Positions 6,818-63,239 of a DNA stretch of 64,000 nucleotides are shown here, piece by piece; position 1 is the stretch's first letter; each line of letters opens with the position of its first letter. Under the pieces are notes generated by a model that was not told the DNA's origin, did not search any database, and was given only the letters and a program-made list of their open reading frames with translations. Origin of the DNA: Telmatobacter sp. DSM 110680 (lineage in GTDB: Bacteria > Acidobacteriota > Terriglobia > Terriglobales > Acidobacteriaceae); NCBI RefSeq assembly GCF_039994875.1, contig NZ_CP121196.1:1736001-1800000 (forward strand), written 5' to 3'. The translations under genes were made by a program, and so were the position numbers.

Positions 6818-7960
6818 CTACTTGTCTTTTTCAGCTGTTTTCCCGGTATCGTCGGTCGCAGAGGACGCGACGATATTTTTAAGCGCATCCTGAACGGCTC
6901 CCTGCACCTCGTCGTGAAAGGCCTCCCGCACAGTCTGCGCGACTTCTTCGGGCTCGAACGGTGTTGAATCCTTGGTGTCGATAACCTTGTCAAGAACCTG
7001 CTCAAGAACGGGCTTAATGCTGATTTGCCGTGCAACTTCCTTCGCTACCTTTTTTGCGGGTACAACGATTGCTGAAGCGAGTTTTGTGTCCTCAATGACA
7101 GGTTCGGAACGTTTCCAGTCCTTCTCAAAGATCGCTTCCATCTCCTTGACGGTTTTCTTGTCGCGGAAGATTAGCCCGATCTCGCGTCGCGCCTCGAGCT
7201 CCAGCTTGCGCAGGCTCTGGCTGCCAAGGAAGGCGGAGTTGCCATCGCGGAGAATGGCGCGGAGGTGCAATCGCGAAGGAAGGCGGCGCACCGAGATATT
7301 GCCACCCTTGGCAGAGGCGCGAGAGAGAACACGTACTTCTGCGCCACTTGAAATTTTCTTCTGCAACAGTTTGAGGAAGTCGCGGTCGCTGATCTTCATC
7401 TCGTAGATCAGCAACTTCTTTTTGGTGCCGGCAATGAAGTTGGTAAGCTGCTTGCGCGCGTTCACCGGACTAACGACAAGATCGCCTTTTACATTCTTAT
7501 AGGGCCGCCGCTTGGAGTCGCTCTCGAAGAGACGAATAGCCTCTTTAACGACGCTTTTCTTTGAGGTGACGATGCCCAGCGAACGGCTGAGATCGATGTC
7601 CATGTGAGTGAAGTTGAATCCGAGCAAGTAGAGCATCTTGTCATCGATGATGAACATTTTGCCGTGATAGCGGACAAGATCGTCAGCAGTGCGAGTAACA
7701 GTAACGCCTTCGGCCAGAAGCCGCATCTCGAGGCGGCGAAGGTTCTTCTCTTCGCCTTGGTTGGTATGCGCGATCAGCGCCTGAACGGTGACGCCGCGGT
7801 TGACGGCGGCGACGAGCGCTTTTTCAATTTCGACACGATCAAAGCGAAAGATGAGAATTCGGATAATCTTTTTGGCTTTTCGCAGAGCGTCGAGGATGGG
7901 TTTAATTCCGTTATCCGGCTGAAGGAGCAGCTTCACGCGGTCTCTCCTGGGATGCTGCAA
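6818..7960 (-). CDS. Phospholipase D-like domain protein
   Basis: A 380-aa protein with two PLD half-sites. The first is canonical HxKx4D (H99, K101, D106; HGKMFIIDD) followed by GFNF. The second, near residues 232-247, reads HLRAILRDGNSAFLGS, with Lys replaced by Arg but His, Asp and the GS motif kept. The family includes cardiolipin synthases, nucleases and phosphatidyltransferases that act through a phospho-histidine. No signal peptide or N-terminal membrane anchor is seen, and the C-terminus (~300-380) is Lys/Ala-rich and probably helical. It heads a minus-strand run with an exported protein and a phosphoesterase. The K-to-R change may reduce or alter activity. Confidence 0.8.
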   Translation of the reverse strand: MQHPRRDRVKLLLQPDNGIKPILDALRKAKKIIRILIFRFDRVEIEKALVAAVNRGVTVQALIAHTNQGEEKNLRRLEMRLLAEGVTVTRTADDLVRYHGKMFIIDDKMLYLLGFNFTHMDIDLSRSLGIVTSKKSVVKEAIRLFESDSKRRPYKNVKGDLVVSPVNARKQLTNFIAGTKKKLLIYEMKISDRDFLKLLQKKISSGAEVRVLSRASAKGGNISVRRLPSRLHLRAILRDGNSAFLGSQSLRKLELEARREIGLIFRDKKTVKEMEAIFEKDWKRSEPVIEDTKLASAIVVPAKKVAKEVARQISIKPVLEQVLDKVIDTKDSTPFEPEEVAQTVREAFHDEVQGAVQDALKNIVASSATDDTGKTAEKDK

Positions 7961-27259: not shown

Positions 27260-27341
27260 TTGGCGTCCCCGACGGGATTTGAACCCGTGTTATCGCCGTG
27301 AAAGGGCGGTGTCCTAGGCCGGGCTAGACGACGGGGACGCT
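27260..27341. repeat. attL-side 82-bp direct repeat containing a full tRNA-Glu gene
   Basis: Bases 27260-27341 are identical to 37507-37588 and in the same orientation. The repeat covers the whole tRNA with its CCA plus 1 bp on one side and 3 bp on the other; flanks diverge immediately outside. Together with the adjacent tyrosine integrase, this marks the left end of an integrated element of about 10.2 kb. Excision would leave one copy. Confidence 0.9.
27261..27338 (-). tRNA. tRNA-Glu (anticodon TTC), copy 1
   Basis: Read on the minus strand, the gene runs from GTCCCCG to CGGGGAC, G73 and an encoded CCA. The acceptor stem is 7 perfect pairs. The anticodon loop is CTTTCAC (TTC), and the T-arm is ACGGG-TTCAAAT-CCCGT. 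The first anticodon-stem pair is a C-A mismatch (CCGCC against GGCGA), shared with copy 2. Both copies look intact. Confidence 0.95.
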
Positions 27342-37506: not shown

Positions 37507-37588
37507 TTGGCGTCCCCGACGGGATTTGAACCCGTGTTATCGCCGTGAAAGGGCGGTGTCCTAGGCCGGGCTAGACGACGGGGACGCT
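37507..37588. repeat. attR-side 82-bp direct repeat containing a full tRNA-Glu gene
   Basis: Identical to 27260-27341. Marks the right boundary of the integrated element. Host-type coding resumes with the transporter at 37964. Confidence 0.9.
37508..37585 (-). tRNA. tRNA-Glu (anticodon TTC), copy 2
   Basis: Sequence identical to copy 1, with encoded CCA and the same C-A mismatch in the anticodon stem. Its 5' flank (37586 onward) should be the ancestral chromosomal flank, since the element lies on the 3' side. No clear promoter was found within 60 bp, so it could have been co-transcribed with something further right. Confidence 0.95.
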
Positions 37589-57398: not shown

Positions 57399-59672
57399 CT
57401 AAAACGAGTAGTGCGCTGAGAGCCGTACGGTCGTCGGCGCACCCTGATGGATGAACGTATCTCCGTAGCTCGCTCCCGTGTCCTTCCAGTACCGTTTGTC
57501 GAGAATATTATCGGCGTACATGTGCAGTGTGATGCGGCCCTTTTCGCCGCCCGGCGTGTAGCGCGCCCCAAGATTGAAGATGTTGTAGCCACCTACGCTA
57601 ACAACGTCGTCGCGGGTCGCCTCTTTGCGGCTGGTGTAACTCCAGCCCGGCATCAGGTGCAGACCGCGCGCGTGCGCCACCAGCAGATCGGCAAATAGAT
57701 TTGTATGAAATCGCGGTACGTTGATGACCTGCTTGTCGTCGAACGACGGCGTTCCGGTGCCAGTTGAGACAGCGCGCATCGCTGTTCCCGAGGCGCTTAG
57801 CTGAATCCAGTTCGCTGCTTTGCCTTGCGCATTCATCTCGATTCCTTCATGCGTTTCATGACCATCCGATTCGAAGCATTGATCGCCCGCGCTTCCTGTA
57901 GGACAAAATGCGTCGGCACCATCGATCACCCTCGGATAGAAAAACGGCTGTCGCATTCGGAAGAGCGCCGCAGTCAGCAGAATGCCGCGCTCATATTTCG
58001 CGCCGACCTCCGCCTGCCGCGTCATAAAGGGAGTCAGGAACGCGCTTGTGTTATCGACCCACCACGGAGCCTGCGGCCCCAGCGAAAGCAGGGTGCCGTA
58101 ATTGCCGTAGAGCGTGAGGCTCTCAACCGGCGAGTATGTGGCTGCATACTGCGGTAGCCACAGCGACCTCGCCGCGGTGTAGTTGAAGTCGGTCACCCGC
58201 ACGAAACGCCCACCCGCCTGCAGCACGACATGACCGGGAAGATGTGCTCGCTCCTGCACGATGCCGGCACTTTGGTGGTTGTAGTCGGCAAGTGCCGAAG
58301 CTCCCGCCTGCGCATCATCCGGCGCGTAAACGATATTCGGTTGATAGACGTTCTCCACGCCGAGCGGCTGGTAAACAATGCTCGACGATAGATCGACCGA
58401 GCGATGAAATAATGAGCCACCCCCCGCCACATCGTGGCTTATTTTGCCGGTGCTGAAATGGCCCTGCAGCAAAGCCTCGCCGATCGCATCGATCCGCAAT
58501 TCGCCAGGACTGCGATAGTCATAAATCTCGTAGCTGCCGTCGGGGCAGAAAAAATAATAGGGCGAATCAGGGCAGAGAGAATTCCCGTCCGCATCCAGCG
58601 CCGGCCCATACGGCCATATCACGTTGTCGTCAACAAGCGAGTGACTATAAGAACCACCGAGATGAAGATTCCAATTCGCGGCAAGTCTGCGTTCAAGCCG
58701 CGCCCCGGCGTTCAACGTATCAAAAGTATTCGGCTTCGACCACGGCTGAAAGCCAAGCATGACGGAGGGATACACAGGCGACGGCACCGTTGTCCCGCCC
58801 AGCAATTGATAACCTGCCTCGGAACGGCCCACCTTGTGCTGATATTCAAAGTCGGTCATTAGTTGCGTCACTGATCCTAGTTGCCATCTTCCGTTCGCCG
58901 CGCCCATACCGCGCCATCCGTTCGCCCCCTCCACGTAGGTGTGGATGTCTTCTCCGGCAGCAGTGATCAAAAGACCCGAGCCGCCATGAAATCCACGCGC
59001 GACAAACTGCACCGCGCCATACGAAGTTCCACGGTGGTCGGTCTCAATATCCAGCGTAGGCCGCTCGCCTGCATACGGTTCTTTAGTTGCGTAATCGATA
59101 ACGCCCCCCGCAGAAGCAATCCCGCTTTCGAGCCCCGCGATCCCTTTGATAAATTCAACCCGCTGCTTGTTTTCAAGCGCAACATCCTGCTCGCCGGCGA
59201 TTGTCATCCCGTTAATCTGCATCCCCGTCGCCAGGTCGATCGGGAATCCGCGAATCTCGTAATCACCGTAGTAGCCCACGGGCGCATAGTCTTCCCCAAT
59301 AGACGCATCGTTCTTTACGACATCGGATAATACACGCGCGATCTGGTCGCTCATCAACCCGCTGGTTATGGCGAGGACAGAAAGCGGCGTCTCCCGGACG
59401 GGTAGGTTGTCGAGACCTGCCGACGTTGAAGCATCCGAGAGATAGTCGTCTTTCACTTCGCCGTGCACGACAACAGTGGTTGTGACGCGATCGAGTTTTT
59501 GCTGAGATGAAACTTGCGGAGCCGGCGCGTTTGGCGTCTGTGCATCCGCCGGCGCAGACGTTGTGCTCTGACCCCAGCCAAAGGAACCTGCCGTAGCAAG
59601 TAAGCTCACGATGATCCACCGCAGACTACTCCGGCGGCGCAATCGTCGCAGATGAGATTGAAGCGCACGCAT
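57399..59672 (-). CDS. TonB-dependent outer-membrane receptor, probable thiamine uptake (OMR type)
   Basis: 757 aa. A signal peptide (IIVSLLATAGSFGWGQS) is followed by a plug domain (~75-190; PVRETPLSVLAITSGL, EVRGFPIDLATGMQINGM-like region) and a 22-strand barrel ending in the terminal Phe (LSAHYSF) needed for outer-membrane insertion. Expression is governed by the TPP riboswitch at 59741-59823, so thiamine or a precursor is the likely cargo. First gene of the run receptor-kinase-permease. Confidence 0.92.
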   Translation of the reverse strand: MRALQSHLRRLRRRSSLRWIIVSLLATAGSFGWGQSTTSAPADAQTPNAPAPQVSSQQKLDRVTTTVVVHGEVKDDYLSDASTSAGLDNLPVRETPLSVLAITSGLMSDQIARVLSDVVKNDASIGEDYAPVGYYGDYEIRGFPIDLATGMQINGMTIAGEQDVALENKQRVEFIKGIAGLESGIASAGGVIDYATKEPYAGERPTLDIETDHRGTSYGAVQFVARGFHGGSGLLITAAGEDIHTYVEGANGWRGMGAANGRWQLGSVTQLMTDFEYQHKVGRSEAGYQLLGGTTVPSPVYPSVMLGFQPWSKPNTFDTLNAGARLERRLAANWNLHLGGSYSHSLVDDNVIWPYGPALDADGNSLCPDSPYYFFCPDGSYEIYDYRSPGELRIDAIGEALLQGHFSTGKISHDVAGGGSLFHRSVDLSSSIVYQPLGVENVYQPNIVYAPDDAQAGASALADYNHQSAGIVQERAHLPGHVVLQAGGRFVRVTDFNYTAARSLWLPQYAATYSPVESLTLYGNYGTLLSLGPQAPWWVDNTSAFLTPFMTRQAEVGAKYERGILLTAALFRMRQPFFYPRVIDGADAFCPTGSAGDQCFESDGHETHEGIEMNAQGKAANWIQLSASGTAMRAVSTGTGTPSFDDKQVINVPRFHTNLFADLLVAHARGLHLMPGWSYTSRKEATRDDVVSVGGYNIFNLGARYTPGGEKGRITLHMYADNILDKRYWKDTGASYGDTFIHQGAPTTVRLSAHYSF

Positions 59673-59700: not shown

Positions 59701-59740
59701 GCGTCTGTGCTGGAAGAGGAAGGACTGGGCCAAACTGGCT

Positions 59741-59823
59741 TCGAAAGCTTCCCACGCCGGCATTATCCGGATCGGGTTCGAGGGTATCTTCTCAGCCCCA
59801 CTTTGTGGAGCACCCCTGTTTCA
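59741..59823 (-). ncRNA. TPP riboswitch (THI element)
   Basis: On the minus strand all conserved blocks occur in order and spacing: GGGGTGC, GGCTGAGA, ATACCC, GAACCCGATCCGGATAA, TGCCGGCG and GTGGGAA, with helix P3 (TCCAC/GTGGG). These form the thiamine-pyrophosphate pocket (CUGAGA and GGAUAA loops). High TPP would shut off the downstream receptor, kinase and permease. Confidence 0.97.
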
Positions 59824-59958
59824 ATAACTAGATTGAAACACCGTTCGCGACCAGAATGCAAATCCCGCGTTCCTGATCGTGTGACCAAACCGTAGTTTTG
59901 CAGGTTACTTCGAATGTCCTCTACAGCCGTGCTGTGAAAGGGCGGCCAACCGAATCGT

Positions 59959-61194: not shown

Positions 61195-61750
61195 GCAACA
61201 GACCTCGTGAGAGCCAGGCGATTGTTCTTGAAGGCGGAAGACCCAGTGTTGATTGTTTTACAGGACGACAGGGATTCTGAAAAGCCGCATTGTGAGTAGG
61301 ATCACGTTCTATCTTGTAGTTCTGATTGTTCCTATAGGCGAATTCTCACTACGAGTAAGTCAGAAGAAATGAACATCTGCAACTTACTCGGAGCATATCT
61401 ATCGAAGTAGTTCCGCAAGTTATCCAGCTCAAATTTCAATTTTGAGTTGGAATTAGATACTGCACCGCAGAAATCTATTATGAATGCACCATGAATGGTG
61501 ATATCCACAGAAAGCAATGGGGTTTTGCACTTGCATCCACAGATCGAACAGGCCTACTGTCTCTAACTAGCTGGTGACTCTGTAGCTGATTGGAACAGCA
61601 ACTCCGGCCTGGTGAAAAGCGTAAGTACCGGTTTTGGTTTTAAGGTTCGCGGTCGGCAGCAATGTCGATAGTGAGTTGAAAGGTCAAGATTGAGAGTGCG
61701 CCGGAACCCAGATCAGGAATGTTGTGACCTGAATGGAACCCGAAGATTCA
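61195..61750. other. Intergenic leader region before the hairpin array
   Basis: About 560 nt with no credible gene. It is AT-rich from 61300 to 61510, with small palindromes such as CACCATGAATGGTG near 61490, then shifts to GC-richer sequence. The promoter of the array RNA should lie here, but I could not fix one. Confidence 0.5.
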
Positions 61751-61820
61751 TCCGCAGCGCAAGCTGAGGATGCAAAGTTCGATCCAGCCAGGGAGACATC
61801 ATCGACTCAGCCGTAGATGC

Positions 61821-62480
61821 GGAAACGGGGTAACCCGAGGAAGCAGATACGGGTCAGCCGAGGAACCAAGGTTCGGGGTAACTCGAAACGCGGTGAATCG
61901 GCGAACGGTGAGAGACCCAAGATTTAGGGCAACCTGGAAATTGGTCAATTGCCGTAGCCAAGGAAGAAGACCCGGGGCAACTCGGAGCTTCAACCAAGGC
62001 AAACCGATGGGTGCGTGATCCGGGGTAACTCGGATATCCATCAGTCGGTACCGGAGGATTCGAAGTGCGGGGCAACCTTCACGACGAATCGTCGGCGATA
62101 CCGAAAGGCTGATTCTCGGGGCGACTTGAGGACTGGCAGCTCGGCACCGCCGAAAGATGCGATCATCGGGGCGACTTGATGAGCCATCGCCGGTAAAGCC
62201 GGAGATGCAGGACGAGGGGAAACCCAAGTCCTACATCGGGGGCGAGGCAGGAGGAAGCAGGCCACGGGGCAACCCGGAACCTGGCTGAAACCAGCAGCGC
62301 CGAAGGCATGAGAGGTTCGGGGCAACTCGAGCATCCATCGCCGGCACAGCCGAAGGACCGAAGCCAAGGGGCAACCCAAGGATTCGGACGCCGGCTCAGG
62401 AGAAAGGGAGCGCGGAAGGGGCAACCCGGAAACGCCGCCCGGTCTGAGCGGGAAGATGCAGGAAGCGGGGCAACTCGCAG
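61821..62480 (+). ncRNA. Tandem array of 14 GNRA-tetraloop hairpins (~49-nt period), putative structured RNA
   Basis: Tetraloops (GTAA, GCAA, GCGA or GAAA) start at 61830, 61878, 61929, 61977, 62025, 62072, 62121, 62171, 62219, 62269, 62322, 62371, 62421 and 62470; gaps are 47-53 nt, mean 49.2. Most stems are 4-8 bp and change in sequence while keeping pairing, e.g. ATCCGGG/CTCGGAT (62018-62035), TCATCGGG/CTTGATGA (62163-62182), GCGGG/CTCGC (62465-62478). Pairing often uses G-U read on the plus strand, so the RNA is the plus-strand transcript. A second small hairpin (CCGG- or CGGC-type, e.g. CATC-G-CCGG loop CCGG-A-GATG at 62185-62207) recurs in many units. Units 6, 9, 12 and 13 have weaker or short stems. 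Repeats are not identical, so this is not a CRISPR array. Function unknown. Confidence 0.8.
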
Positions 62481-62537
62481 CCTCATCAACAGGCCGATAG
62501 AGACGATGTTTGATCCATTGAGCTAAAAGATCATCCG

Positions 62538-62573
62538 GAAAACGCCGGAGGCCGCAAGGTCTCCGGCGTTTTC
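62538..62573 (+). terminator. Strong bidirectional intrinsic terminator after the array
   Basis: GAAAACGCCGGAG (62538-62550) pairs perfectly with CTCCGGCGTTTTC (62561-62573) over 13 bp; the inner GCCGCAAGGT can itself close as CC-GCAA-GG. A and T runs at both edges make it work both ways, ending the array RNA and the convergent isochorismatase-like gene. Confidence 0.85.
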
Positions 62574-62639
62574 AATTTCAGGGGCGAAATGGTGGATGCC
62601 CTTACGCGTTGAGCCGATCTGCTCCAAAATAATCCTGAG

Positions 62640-63239
62640 TCAAACTGACGTCGATTGAAGCGCCTTCACCAGCTCATCAGCAGTGATGACGGTGGCCCGC
62701 TGAGGAAAGAATCTTTCCGTCAGACAGGCACGCAGCTCGGCGTCCAGATCGGCGCAGCAATCCCTCAGAACGAAGAGGTTATAGTCGGCGTCACTGGCAT
62801 GCAGTAATGTCGACAGCACCACACCGCTGGTCGCGATTCCCAGCAGGATGAGGGTATCGATTCTGTTTGCCCGCAGAATCATGTCGAGTTCTGTACCGGC
62901 AAATGCGCCGATGCGGTGCTTGGTGATCACAACTTCGTCGTCATTTGGCGCAACGTCCCCATGAATTGCACCGGCAGGTCCCTGGAAGATCTGCTGCCAT
63001 TGAGGGGAATTCTTGATCGCGCCGATGAGCTGGTTTCGCGTATCCACTTCGGGAAGCCCCGGTCGAAAACCCACCCGCACGTGGATTACGCGGATGTTGT
63101 TGTTCCGGGCCGCACTGAGCGCGCTTCTGACGCGGTAGAGGAACTCCGGCTCATCTTTTGTGTAGATCTTAACCACCGAGGCCTGCAGATCCATGCTCAA
63201 CAGTGCGGTGCGGCTTGCTTCAATCTTCAGATGAGCCAT
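62640..63239 (-). CDS. Isochorismatase-like (cysteine-hydrolase fold) protein lacking the usual Cys
   Basis: 199 aa. The fold's Asp (LLSMDLQ, ~17) and Lys (VITKHRIGAFAGTELD, ~108) are present. At the nucleophile position the sequence is GIATSGVVLSTLLHA, where Val replaces the Cys expected in T-x-x-C-V. A CC pair occurs later (LRDCCADLD), conserved in the same subfamily by memory. Catalysis of a typical amidase or isochorismatase type is therefore doubtful; it may bind or act by another residue. Monocistronic or paired with the 58-aa gene upstream (21-nt gap). Confidence 0.82.
   Translation of the reverse strand: MAHLKIEASRTALLSMDLQASVVKIYTKDEPEFLYRVRSALSAARNNNIRVIHVRVGFRPGLPEVDTRNQLIGAIKNSPQWQQIFQGPAGAIHGDVAPNDDEVVITKHRIGAFAGTELDMILRANRIDTLILLGIATSGVVLSTLLHASDADYNLFVLRDCCADLDAELRACLTERFFPQRATVITADELVKALQSTSV

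What the first reader, a model, noticed from the sequence alone, without database searches (positions are those of the whole stretch)
61821..62480. Tandem array of 14 GNRA hairpins with ~49-nt period: candidate new structured RNA
Fourteen tetraloop hairpins are spaced 47-53 nt apart over 650 nt, each with a G(T/C/A)(A/G)A loop closed by G-C. Outer base pairs vary while pairing is mostly kept, which looks like internal covariation among units. G-U wobble pairs work only on the plus strand, fixing the direction. A second small hairpin recurs in many units, and the region ends at a strong intrinsic terminator. Frames inside lack ribosome sites and recognisable composition. It matches no RNA class I can name. 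It might be a scaffold or decoy for a GNRA-binding protein, or an RNA that assembles into a repeat lattice; both are guesses.
Basis: partly seen in the sequence, partly recalled or inferred. Interest (0 to 1): 0.95.

Follow-up and report, generated by a model that had tools for sequence, protein, structure and literature searches.

The report
Hairpin-array RNA from backwards tRNA
Bacteria of the family Acidobacteriaceae carry a gene, absent from the Rfam library of RNA families, that is predicted to make a probably non-coding RNA of about 300 to 1,200 letters strung with up to 17 hairpins whose tips share one four-letter fold; it probably descends from a transfer-RNA gene read backwards and likely serves as a docking scaffold.

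Summary
Fourteen GNRA hairpins, 47-53 nt apart, fill 61826-62478 on the + strand; fold z is -12.2 on + and -3.4 on -. They are the middle of a predicted ~1.0-kb gene with a conserved promoter box, a conserved 5' domain, a stem closing 5' end on 3' end, and an intrinsic terminator (62538-62573). Rfam has no match. The gene recurs across the window's genus, which includes Occallatibacter savannae (5'-end model: 53 of 68 genomes), and in 3 of 78 other genera sampled in the family; neighbours are poorly kept. Among 479 hairpins from 43 genomes the stems covary strongly. In those genomes 174 of 201 tetraloops on stems of 6 bp or more are GNRA, none TNCG. CsrA is absent. In five genomes a closely similar promoter box and terminator flank a transcript antisense to a tRNA-like sequence. 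Profiles of the array RNA's two ends match all six tRNA-like sequences known to me, in antisense, and none of five real tRNA-Arg genes, so the gene probably arose from a tRNA read backwards. Function is inferred: most likely an architectural RNA whose GNRA caps dock onto G-C helices, or onto a shape-reading protein.

The parts
61523..61541 (+). Conserved promoter box TTTTGCACTTGCATCCACA; likely -35 TTGCAT at 61531-61536
   Evidence: Found with up to 2 mismatches in 65 of 80 genus genomes, once in 53 of those 65; the pattern read backwards rings in 5 of 80; coordinates; the -35 reading is inferred
61555..61560 (+). Likely -10 box TACTGT, 18 nt after the -35; predicted start near 61567
   Evidence: TANNNT at 17-19 nt spacing in 43 of 62 aligned 5' ends; inference
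61568..61587 (+). 5' strand of the closing stem; resembles antisense of a tRNA acceptor/T-arm end
   Evidence: 51 genomes: native duplex mean -13.39 against -11.96 (sd 0.37) with swapped partners, 0 of 300; profile match to antisense tRNA-like loci
61735..61838 (+). Conserved 5' domain (model R1), hairpin 61741-61781, running into the first array hairpin
   Evidence: A1 of 13 genomes, 4 of 23 predicted pairs with two-sided changes; R1 finds 41 of 80 genus genomes, own included
61826..62478 (+). Array of 14 GNRA hairpins, period 47-53 nt
61826..61837 (+). Hairpin 1 (GTAA)
61872..61887 (+). Hairpin 2 (GTAA)
61923..61938 (+). Hairpin 3 (GCAA)
61972..61985 (+). Hairpin 4 (GCAA)
62018..62035 (+). 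Hairpin 5 (GTAA)
62069..62078 (+). Hairpin 6 (GCAA)
62113..62132 (+). Hairpin 7 (GCGA)
62163..62182 (+). Hairpin 8 (GCGA)
62216..62225 (+). Hairpin 9 (GAAA)
62265..62276 (+). Hairpin 10 (GCAA)
62315..62332 (+). Hairpin 11 (GCAA)
62368..62377 (+). Hairpin 12 (GCAA)
62418..62427 (+). Hairpin 13 (GCAA)
62465..62478 (+). Hairpin 14 (GCAA)
62512..62536 (+). 3' strand of the closing stem; resembles antisense of a tRNA D-arm and 5' acceptor strand
62538..62573 (+). Intrinsic terminator, 16-nt arms, ending in GTTTTC
   Evidence: Inverted repeat I1; hairpin in the fold of 61560-62580

Best explanation
This is a gene for a predicted, probably non-coding RNA of about 1.0 kb whose two ends likely pair to close a ring that displays 14 GNRA-capped hairpins, and it likely works as an architectural RNA in which the GNRA caps would dock onto neighbouring helices. 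Shown by sequence comparison: a conserved promoter box, 5' domain, closing stem, covarying hairpins and terminator, kept together while neighbouring genes differ. Shown: GNRA is kept while the stem letters under it drift, and the number of hairpins differs between species, which fits a multivalent device. Shown: a closely similar promoter box precedes an antisense tRNA-like sequence in five genomes, and the array RNA's ends match the ends of that antisense sequence. Inferred: the gene arose from a tRNA-Arg-like locus transcribed backwards whose interior expanded into the array. Inferred and untested: transcription, the ring fold, and docking of GNRA caps into G-C minor grooves of the same or other copies (as in self-assembling ornate RNAs) or onto a protein that reads their shape.
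For: Covariation: 479 distinct units from 43 of 61 genomes examined; pairs -1/+1 to -11/+11 have z 6-22 on the diagonal (permutation z, not corrected for kinship; +-1 to +-3 were used for picking). On all 80 units sampled outside G000, G001 and G008, 75.5% of cells pair against 20-43% slid, and 191 cells have two-sided changes against 77 shuffled, 0 of 300, and 29-73 slid; one search gives the like on 62 of them. Strand: G-U 321 against A-C 170 at seven unselected positions; fold z -12.2 on + against -3.4 on -. GNRA selection: 174 of 201 tetraloops with stems of 6 bp or more in the 43 genomes with a chain, TNCG 0; shuffles give 1.6 GNRA of about 44. In 12 genomes not chosen for a chain, 8 of 18 are GNRA against 0.2 shuffled. 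Closing stem: 0 of 300 swaps as good, 51 genomes. Autonomy: promoter box in 65 of 80 genus genomes; a homologue of the window's 59-aa ORF is found in 9 of 56 fetched stretches, the isochorismatase in 4, the MFS gene in none. Range: R2 in 53 of 68 genus genomes and 54 of 398 family genomes, 4 of 79 genera. Antisense-tRNA link: five units with a closely similar promoter box. Profiles of array-RNA ends find them in 859 kb with array RNAs masked: 5' end (promoter excluded) E 4e-5, 7.7e-5, 0.0057, 0.067; 3' end E 0.0013, 0.0025, 0.12, 0.37, plus 0.071 at L207. Run on 11 antisense sequences, both profiles match all six tRNA-like ones and none of five real tRNA-Arg. 5' ends score mean z 2.66 against the antisense tRNA-likes, 1.15 against their sense strands.
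Against: No transcript is shown. No receptor for the GNRA loops was identified, and the loop's second and third letters vary. 7 of 37 good genus genomes lack an R2 match, so it is dispensable or diverges fast. 18 of 61 genomes lack a chain of four or more GNRA units. Hairpins with 6-nt loops are also in excess in the arrays, 83 against 42 shuffled. The repeat unit's own profile matches none of the antisense tRNA sequences. Beyond the acceptor region only 12 of 73 sequences reach z>3 against them, and the mean is no better than for the sense strand, 1.12 against 1.34. Several profile matches are weak: L213 is not among the 14 rows shown for the 5' profile and L215 not among those for the 3' profile. 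At +-8 A-C exceeds G-U.
Confidence: 0.45

Rival explanations
1. A protein sponge: each GNRA-capped hairpin binds one copy of a regulator, as CsrB does for CsrA, but with an unknown protein that reads hairpin shape.
For: Hairpin number varies from 5 to 17 among the 43 genomes with a chain while the hairpin form stays; GNRA is selected over other loops.
Against: CsrA is absent from this genome while the same search rings in 3 of 14 control genomes; outside the stem-loop no position is fixed, the best being G at -15 in 340 of 479 and at +19 in 339 of 479.
Confidence: 0.27
2. An antisense regulator of a tRNA: the RNA's ends pair with the T-arm/acceptor and D-arm of a tRNA and the array is a stabilising body.
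For: 5' and 3' ends match antisense tRNA-like ends; five genomes carry antisense tRNA-like units with a closely similar promoter box.
Against: Similarity to the antisense of real tRNA-Arg genes is weak (mean z 1.03 for the 5' end; no profile match); the two ends pair better with each other than with ends of other genomes.
Confidence: 0.12
3. A precursor cut at each unit into many short hairpin RNAs that act individually.
For: Regular units with spacers between them.
Against: Stem sequences drift, so no common seed is kept; the conserved closing stem suggests an intact molecule.
Confidence: 0.08
4. A DNA-level repeat or decaying relic with no RNA function, for example a REP/BIME-like array.
For: Variable copy number and a 3-unit super-repeat (0 of 200 shuffles) suggest local duplication.
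Against: Single place in the own genome, G-U excess on one strand, conserved promoter box, closing stem and terminator.
Confidence: 0.06

Closest known systems
Ornate large RNAs ROOL, GOLLD and OLE
   Same: Large, highly structured bacterial RNAs of unclear function; ROOL and GOLLD often lie near tRNA islands (PMC12286853, passages seen)
   Different: No Rfam match; no copy in viral contigs with the 5'-domain pattern; a regular tandem of one hairpin type, which I know of in none of the three (recalled)
CsrB/RsmZ-type sponges
   Same: Several like hairpins in one RNA (recalled)
   Different: CsrA absent; none of the window's 14 array loops holds GGA
REP/BIME arrays and naRNA4 of E. coli
   Same: Tandem short hairpins of about 40-50 nt that can be transcribed (recalled)
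   Different: Single locus with its own promoter box, terminator and closing stem
tRNA-Arg-like genes, antisense strand
   Same: Ends of the RNA and the five promoter-linked tRNA-like loci
   Different: ARAGORN finds no tRNA at the window's locus; interior replaced by the array
Acido-1 and Acido-Lenti-1 RNAs
   Same: Predicted structured RNAs of Acidobacteria (table passage of PMC2864571)
   Different: Both carry Rfam accessions in that table, and neither was reported in the window

Membership tests
Any Rfam 15 family | Score at or above the family's gathering threshold | tested here: not met
   Only TPP and two tRNA matches in the window; 5 sub-threshold matches, best E 1, in 61300-62700
CsrB/RsmZ sponge | CsrA encoded in the genome | tested here: not met
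   PF02599 not found in G000
CsrB/RsmZ sponge | GGA in hairpin loops | tested here: inconclusive
   0 of the window's 14 array loops; the 479 units were picked as GNRA, so their loops are no test; loops in spacers were not examined
Ornate large RNAs (ROOL, GOLLD, OLE) | Long RNA with extensive covarying structure | tested here: met
   that it is transcribed is predicted
Ornate large RNAs (ROOL, GOLLD, OLE) | Sequence and structure match to one of the three models | tested here: not met
Ornate large RNAs (ROOL, GOLLD, OLE) | Homo-oligomeric RNA-only particle | not testable with these tools
   needs in vitro RNA and cryo-EM
REP/BIME | Many dispersed copies per genome | tested here: not met
   One place in the 5.99-Mb genome by DNA search and by array pattern
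Antisense-tRNA transcription unit | Closely similar promoter box | tested here: met
Antisense-tRNA transcription unit | Ends homologous to antisense tRNA-like ends | tested here: met
   strongest E 4e-5 and 0.0013, weaker for other copies, six of six tRNA-like and none of five real tRNA-Arg
Antisense-tRNA transcription unit | Repeat unit homologous to tRNA arms | tested here: not met
   unit profile gives no match to 11 antisense sequences, six tRNA-like and five tRNA-Arg
Protein-coding gene | Frame kept between species | tested here: not met
   8 of 13 spacings are not multiples of 3; of 308 matches of six ORFs the 25 printed, all of the longest minus ORF, fall in all three minus frames, though one reaches 55% over 74 aa in G099, and open minus stretches of 91-264 codons occur in the 20 genomes printed

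The most novel reading that the evidence does not exclude
A tRNA gene read backwards was hollowed out and refilled with up to 17 GNRA hairpins, giving a new kind of RNA machine: a closed ring of docking knobs that folds on itself or on its sister copies into an RNA-only particle.
Probability: 0.3. Interest if true: 0.95.

Novelty: categorically new. Interest (0 to 1): 0.86.

Why it matters
It would add a family of large structured bacterial RNA with a plain modular design, one hairpin repeated, that makes multivalent GNRA docking directly testable by changing loop identity or copy number. The antisense-tRNA link would give a traceable origin for a large RNA of unknown function, which is rare as far as I know (recalled), and echoes the report that ROOL and GOLLD often lie near tRNA islands (PMC12286853, passages seen). 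One record matched by the 5'-domain pattern, Occallatibacter savannae AB23, is a named strain, so the test should be practicable.

Tried and rejected
CsrB-like sponge through CsrA: rejected, CsrA absent. Rfam families: none (only found the two tRNA-likes). Coding: matches of the longest minus ORF scatter over frames. Pairing across units (CATC of one unit with GATG of the next): weak, its diagonal z at most 3.3; the i to i+2 control reaches 5.8 elsewhere. Replication origin: the skew shows no clear switch at the array. Phage origin: the 5'-domain pattern has 0 matches in viral contigs. Neighbour linkage: poor (in that script the reference point was misplaced in some stretches, so I use presence only and no distances). 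Repeat unit as tRNA arms: no profile match; pairwise scores beyond the acceptor pass z 3 in only 12 of 73, best in the short copies of G013 and G042. A consensus structure for the 5' terminal region A2: RNAalifold gave two pairs only. Kink-turn, sigma-54 promoter and DnaA-box readings were considered by eye and not tested. The 3-unit super-repeat may be duplication history and not geometry.

Literature: six topic searches listed no paper that I recognised as describing this RNA: GNRA tandem and Acidobacteria, ornate RNAs in Acidobacteria, antisense tRNA, Acidobacteriaceae small RNA (no paper), reverse-complement tRNA transcripts, Terracidiphilus/Occallatibacter transcriptome; two more were for comparison. 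For these I saw search listings and starts of abstracts. Passages were seen of PMC12286853 and PMC2864571. The library holds open-licence PMC papers only.

Full report
What is there. Window 61826-62478 holds 14 plus-strand GNRA hairpins 47-53 nt apart. Fold z is -12.2 on + and -3.4 on -. Rfam has no family for it at gathering scores in the whole window, nor in 61300-62700 at E up to 10 beyond five sub-threshold matches. The window lies at 1736001-1800000 of a 5.99-Mb single-contig genome in which the array occurs at one place.

Relatives. The array's DNA matches 23 of 99 genomes, the own one included, all in the same genus; some of these matches cover little more than the terminator. A model of the 5' domain (R1, 13 sequences) finds 41 of 80 genomes of the genus, 33 of 397 of the order in 3 of 80 genera, and 3 of 396 of the phylum, all in the genus; searches over more than 40 genomes use stricter filters and can lose weak matches. 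A pattern from the 5' domain finds 17 named records, all titled Acidobacteria, Acidobacteriota, Acidobacteriaceae, Terracidiphilus or Occallatibacter, with Occallatibacter savannae AB23 and two Terracidiphilus MAGs among them. The AB23 contig has the length of the G008 contig carrying the array (992511 bases), which is how I place the genus; that is an inference. A listed title says that Terracidiphilus gabretensis has been moved to Occallatibacter (PMC12935467, listing seen).

Promoter and ends. TTTTGCACTTGNATCCACA with up to 2 mismatches occurs in 65 of 80 genus genomes (36 of 42 good ones), once in 53 of the 65; the pattern read backwards rings in 5 of 80. At up to 1 mismatch it occurs in 34 of 398 family genomes, all in this genus. 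A model of the 5' end (R2, 34 sequences, essentially a sequence profile) finds 53 of 68 genus genomes; in one of them, G009, the only match is an antisense-tRNA unit. Over the family it finds 54 of 398 genomes: 43 of 50 of this genus and 11 in three of 78 other genera. Of the 11 other-genus loci read, G130 and G319 carry chains of GNRA hairpins about 49 nt apart; the other nine have none to three GNRA hairpins of 4 bp or more in the RNA itself. Measured lengths from promoter to terminator run from 360 to 1194 nt in the genus; that detector missed the terminator in part of the 60 genomes, and in G169 of another genus the terminator ends about 320 nt from the promoter. Neighbours are poorly kept: of 56 fetched stretches of differing length, a homologue of the 59-aa ORF is in 9, the isochorismatase in 4, the MFS gene in none.

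Structure. Among 61 genomes examined, 43 have four or more chained GNRA hairpins, giving 479 distinct units; the pair matrix has a sharp diagonal to +-11. On all 80 units sampled outside the window's genome and its two closest relatives, 75.5% of cells pair against 20-43% slid, and 191 cells have two-sided changes against 77 in shuffles (0 of 300) and 29-73 slid. A MAFFT alignment of 62 of them gives 146 against 57 and 18-43; there all 10 pairs show two-sided changes, a measure that 59 of 500 shuffles also reach. At seven positions not used for picking hairpins 65% of cells pair, against 22-42% slid, over all 479; one unit per genome gives 65% too. At those positions G-U exceeds A-C, 321 to 170, though not at +-8 (21 to 29). 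Tetraloops on stems of 6 bp or more are GNRA in 174 of 201 and TNCG in none in the 43 chain genomes. In 12 genomes without a chain 8 of 18 are GNRA, against 0.2 in shuffles. A merely stable cap could also be TNCG, so the GNRA fold itself seems needed (inference). Loops of 6 nt are in excess too, 83 against 42. Of the 13 spacings here 8 are not multiples of three, and the printed matches of the longest minus ORF fall in all three minus frames, one of them 55% over 74 aa in G099. The 5' and 3' ends pair: mean duplex energy -13.39 against -11.96 when partners are swapped, 0 of 300, in 51 genomes. Units three apart are more alike than others, 0 of 200 shuffles. A held-out unit model finds all 14 units here, three of them weakly.

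Antisense tRNA. R2's second matches in G016 and G051, and a DNA search, led to five units in G016, G051, G103, G009 and G045. In each, a closely similar promoter box is followed by the antisense of a tRNA-like sequence and then a terminator, GCGCCAGRG in four and GTGCCAGGG in one. ARAGORN calls the sense strands Thr cgt (G016), Ser gct (G051), Ala cgc (G103), Ser gct (G009) and undetermined ccga (G045). Of 11 other tRNA hits checked 10 are tRNA-Arg and one tRNA-His. The anticodons drift, so I infer that the five do not serve as ordinary tRNAs. Profiles of the array RNAs' 5' end (promoter excluded) and 3' end, run over 859 kb with array RNAs masked, find these loci in the antisense direction: 5' end L193 4e-5, L214 7.7e-5, L194 0.0057, L215 0.067; 3' end L193 0.0013, L214 0.0025, L207 0.071, L194 0.12, L213 0.37. 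L213 is not among the 14 rows shown for the 5' end, nor L215 among those for the 3' end. Most other rows lie in stretches that hold array RNAs the masking missed. Run on 11 antisense sequences alone, both profiles match all six tRNA-like ones (these five and L207 of G008) at matching ends, and none of five real tRNA-Arg. 5' ends score mean z 2.66 against the antisense tRNA-likes, 1.15 against their sense strands and 1.03 against antisense tRNA-Arg, 32 of 74 above z 3; the short RNA of G013 aligns to the antisense over about 65 nt. Against this: the unit profile matches no tRNA, and beyond the acceptor most array RNAs are no closer to the antisense than to the sense, 12 of 73 above z 3. I hold descent from an antisense tRNA as probable for the gene's ends and open for the repeat unit.

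How it works. CsrA is absent, so the best-known hairpin sponge does not apply. What selection keeps is a GNRA cap on a G-C-rich stem (G at -3 in 433 of 479, at -2 in 374 of 479; these positions were part of the picking), a regular spacing, and pairing ends; it does not keep the number of units. That fits multivalent docking. GNRA loops docking into G-C minor grooves is established RNA chemistry (recalled). Self-assembly without protein has a precedent in ROOL, GOLLD and OLE (PMC12286853, abstract start and passages). A protein that reads the hairpin's shape is the main rival. Transcription, fold and function are all untested.

Verdict. The feature is real and the window's RNA belongs to no family in the library searched. 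The design and the antisense-tRNA link set it apart from the kinds I compared, so I rate it categorically new, with the mechanism at moderate confidence.

Noticed in passing
window 27261-27338 and 37508-37585: Two tRNA-Glu (ttc) genes on the minus strand, identical over the 75 nt compared, bracket a stretch of lower G+C (0.46-0.52 over 28-38 kb); looks like an integrated element at a tRNA.
   Followed up: partly
window 59732-59827: TPP riboswitch on the minus strand just upstream of a TonB-dependent receptor gene (57399-59672).
   Followed up: no
L213 (G103), promoter boxes at 1288 and 3506 of the reverse strand: An antisense-tRNA unit and an array RNA gene lie 2.2 kb apart on the same strand.
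   Followed up: partly
L041 (G033), L134 (G013), L137 (G042): Two copies of the RNA gene lie near each other on one contig; the G013 and G042 copies are only about 360 nt long.
   Followed up: partly
L207 987-1061: tRNA-Ser (cga)-like sequence in G008, 84% like the antisense-tRNA unit of G016; no promoter box seen by eye in the flank printed.
   Followed up: partly
L035 (G017) near 7571: 5' domain kept, but only one GNRA hairpin of 3 bp or more was listed after it before an apparent terminator: a shortened array.
   Followed up: no
window about 61500-61541 and related loci: Two ATCCACA boxes precede the likely -10 and resemble DnaA boxes by eye.
   Followed up: no
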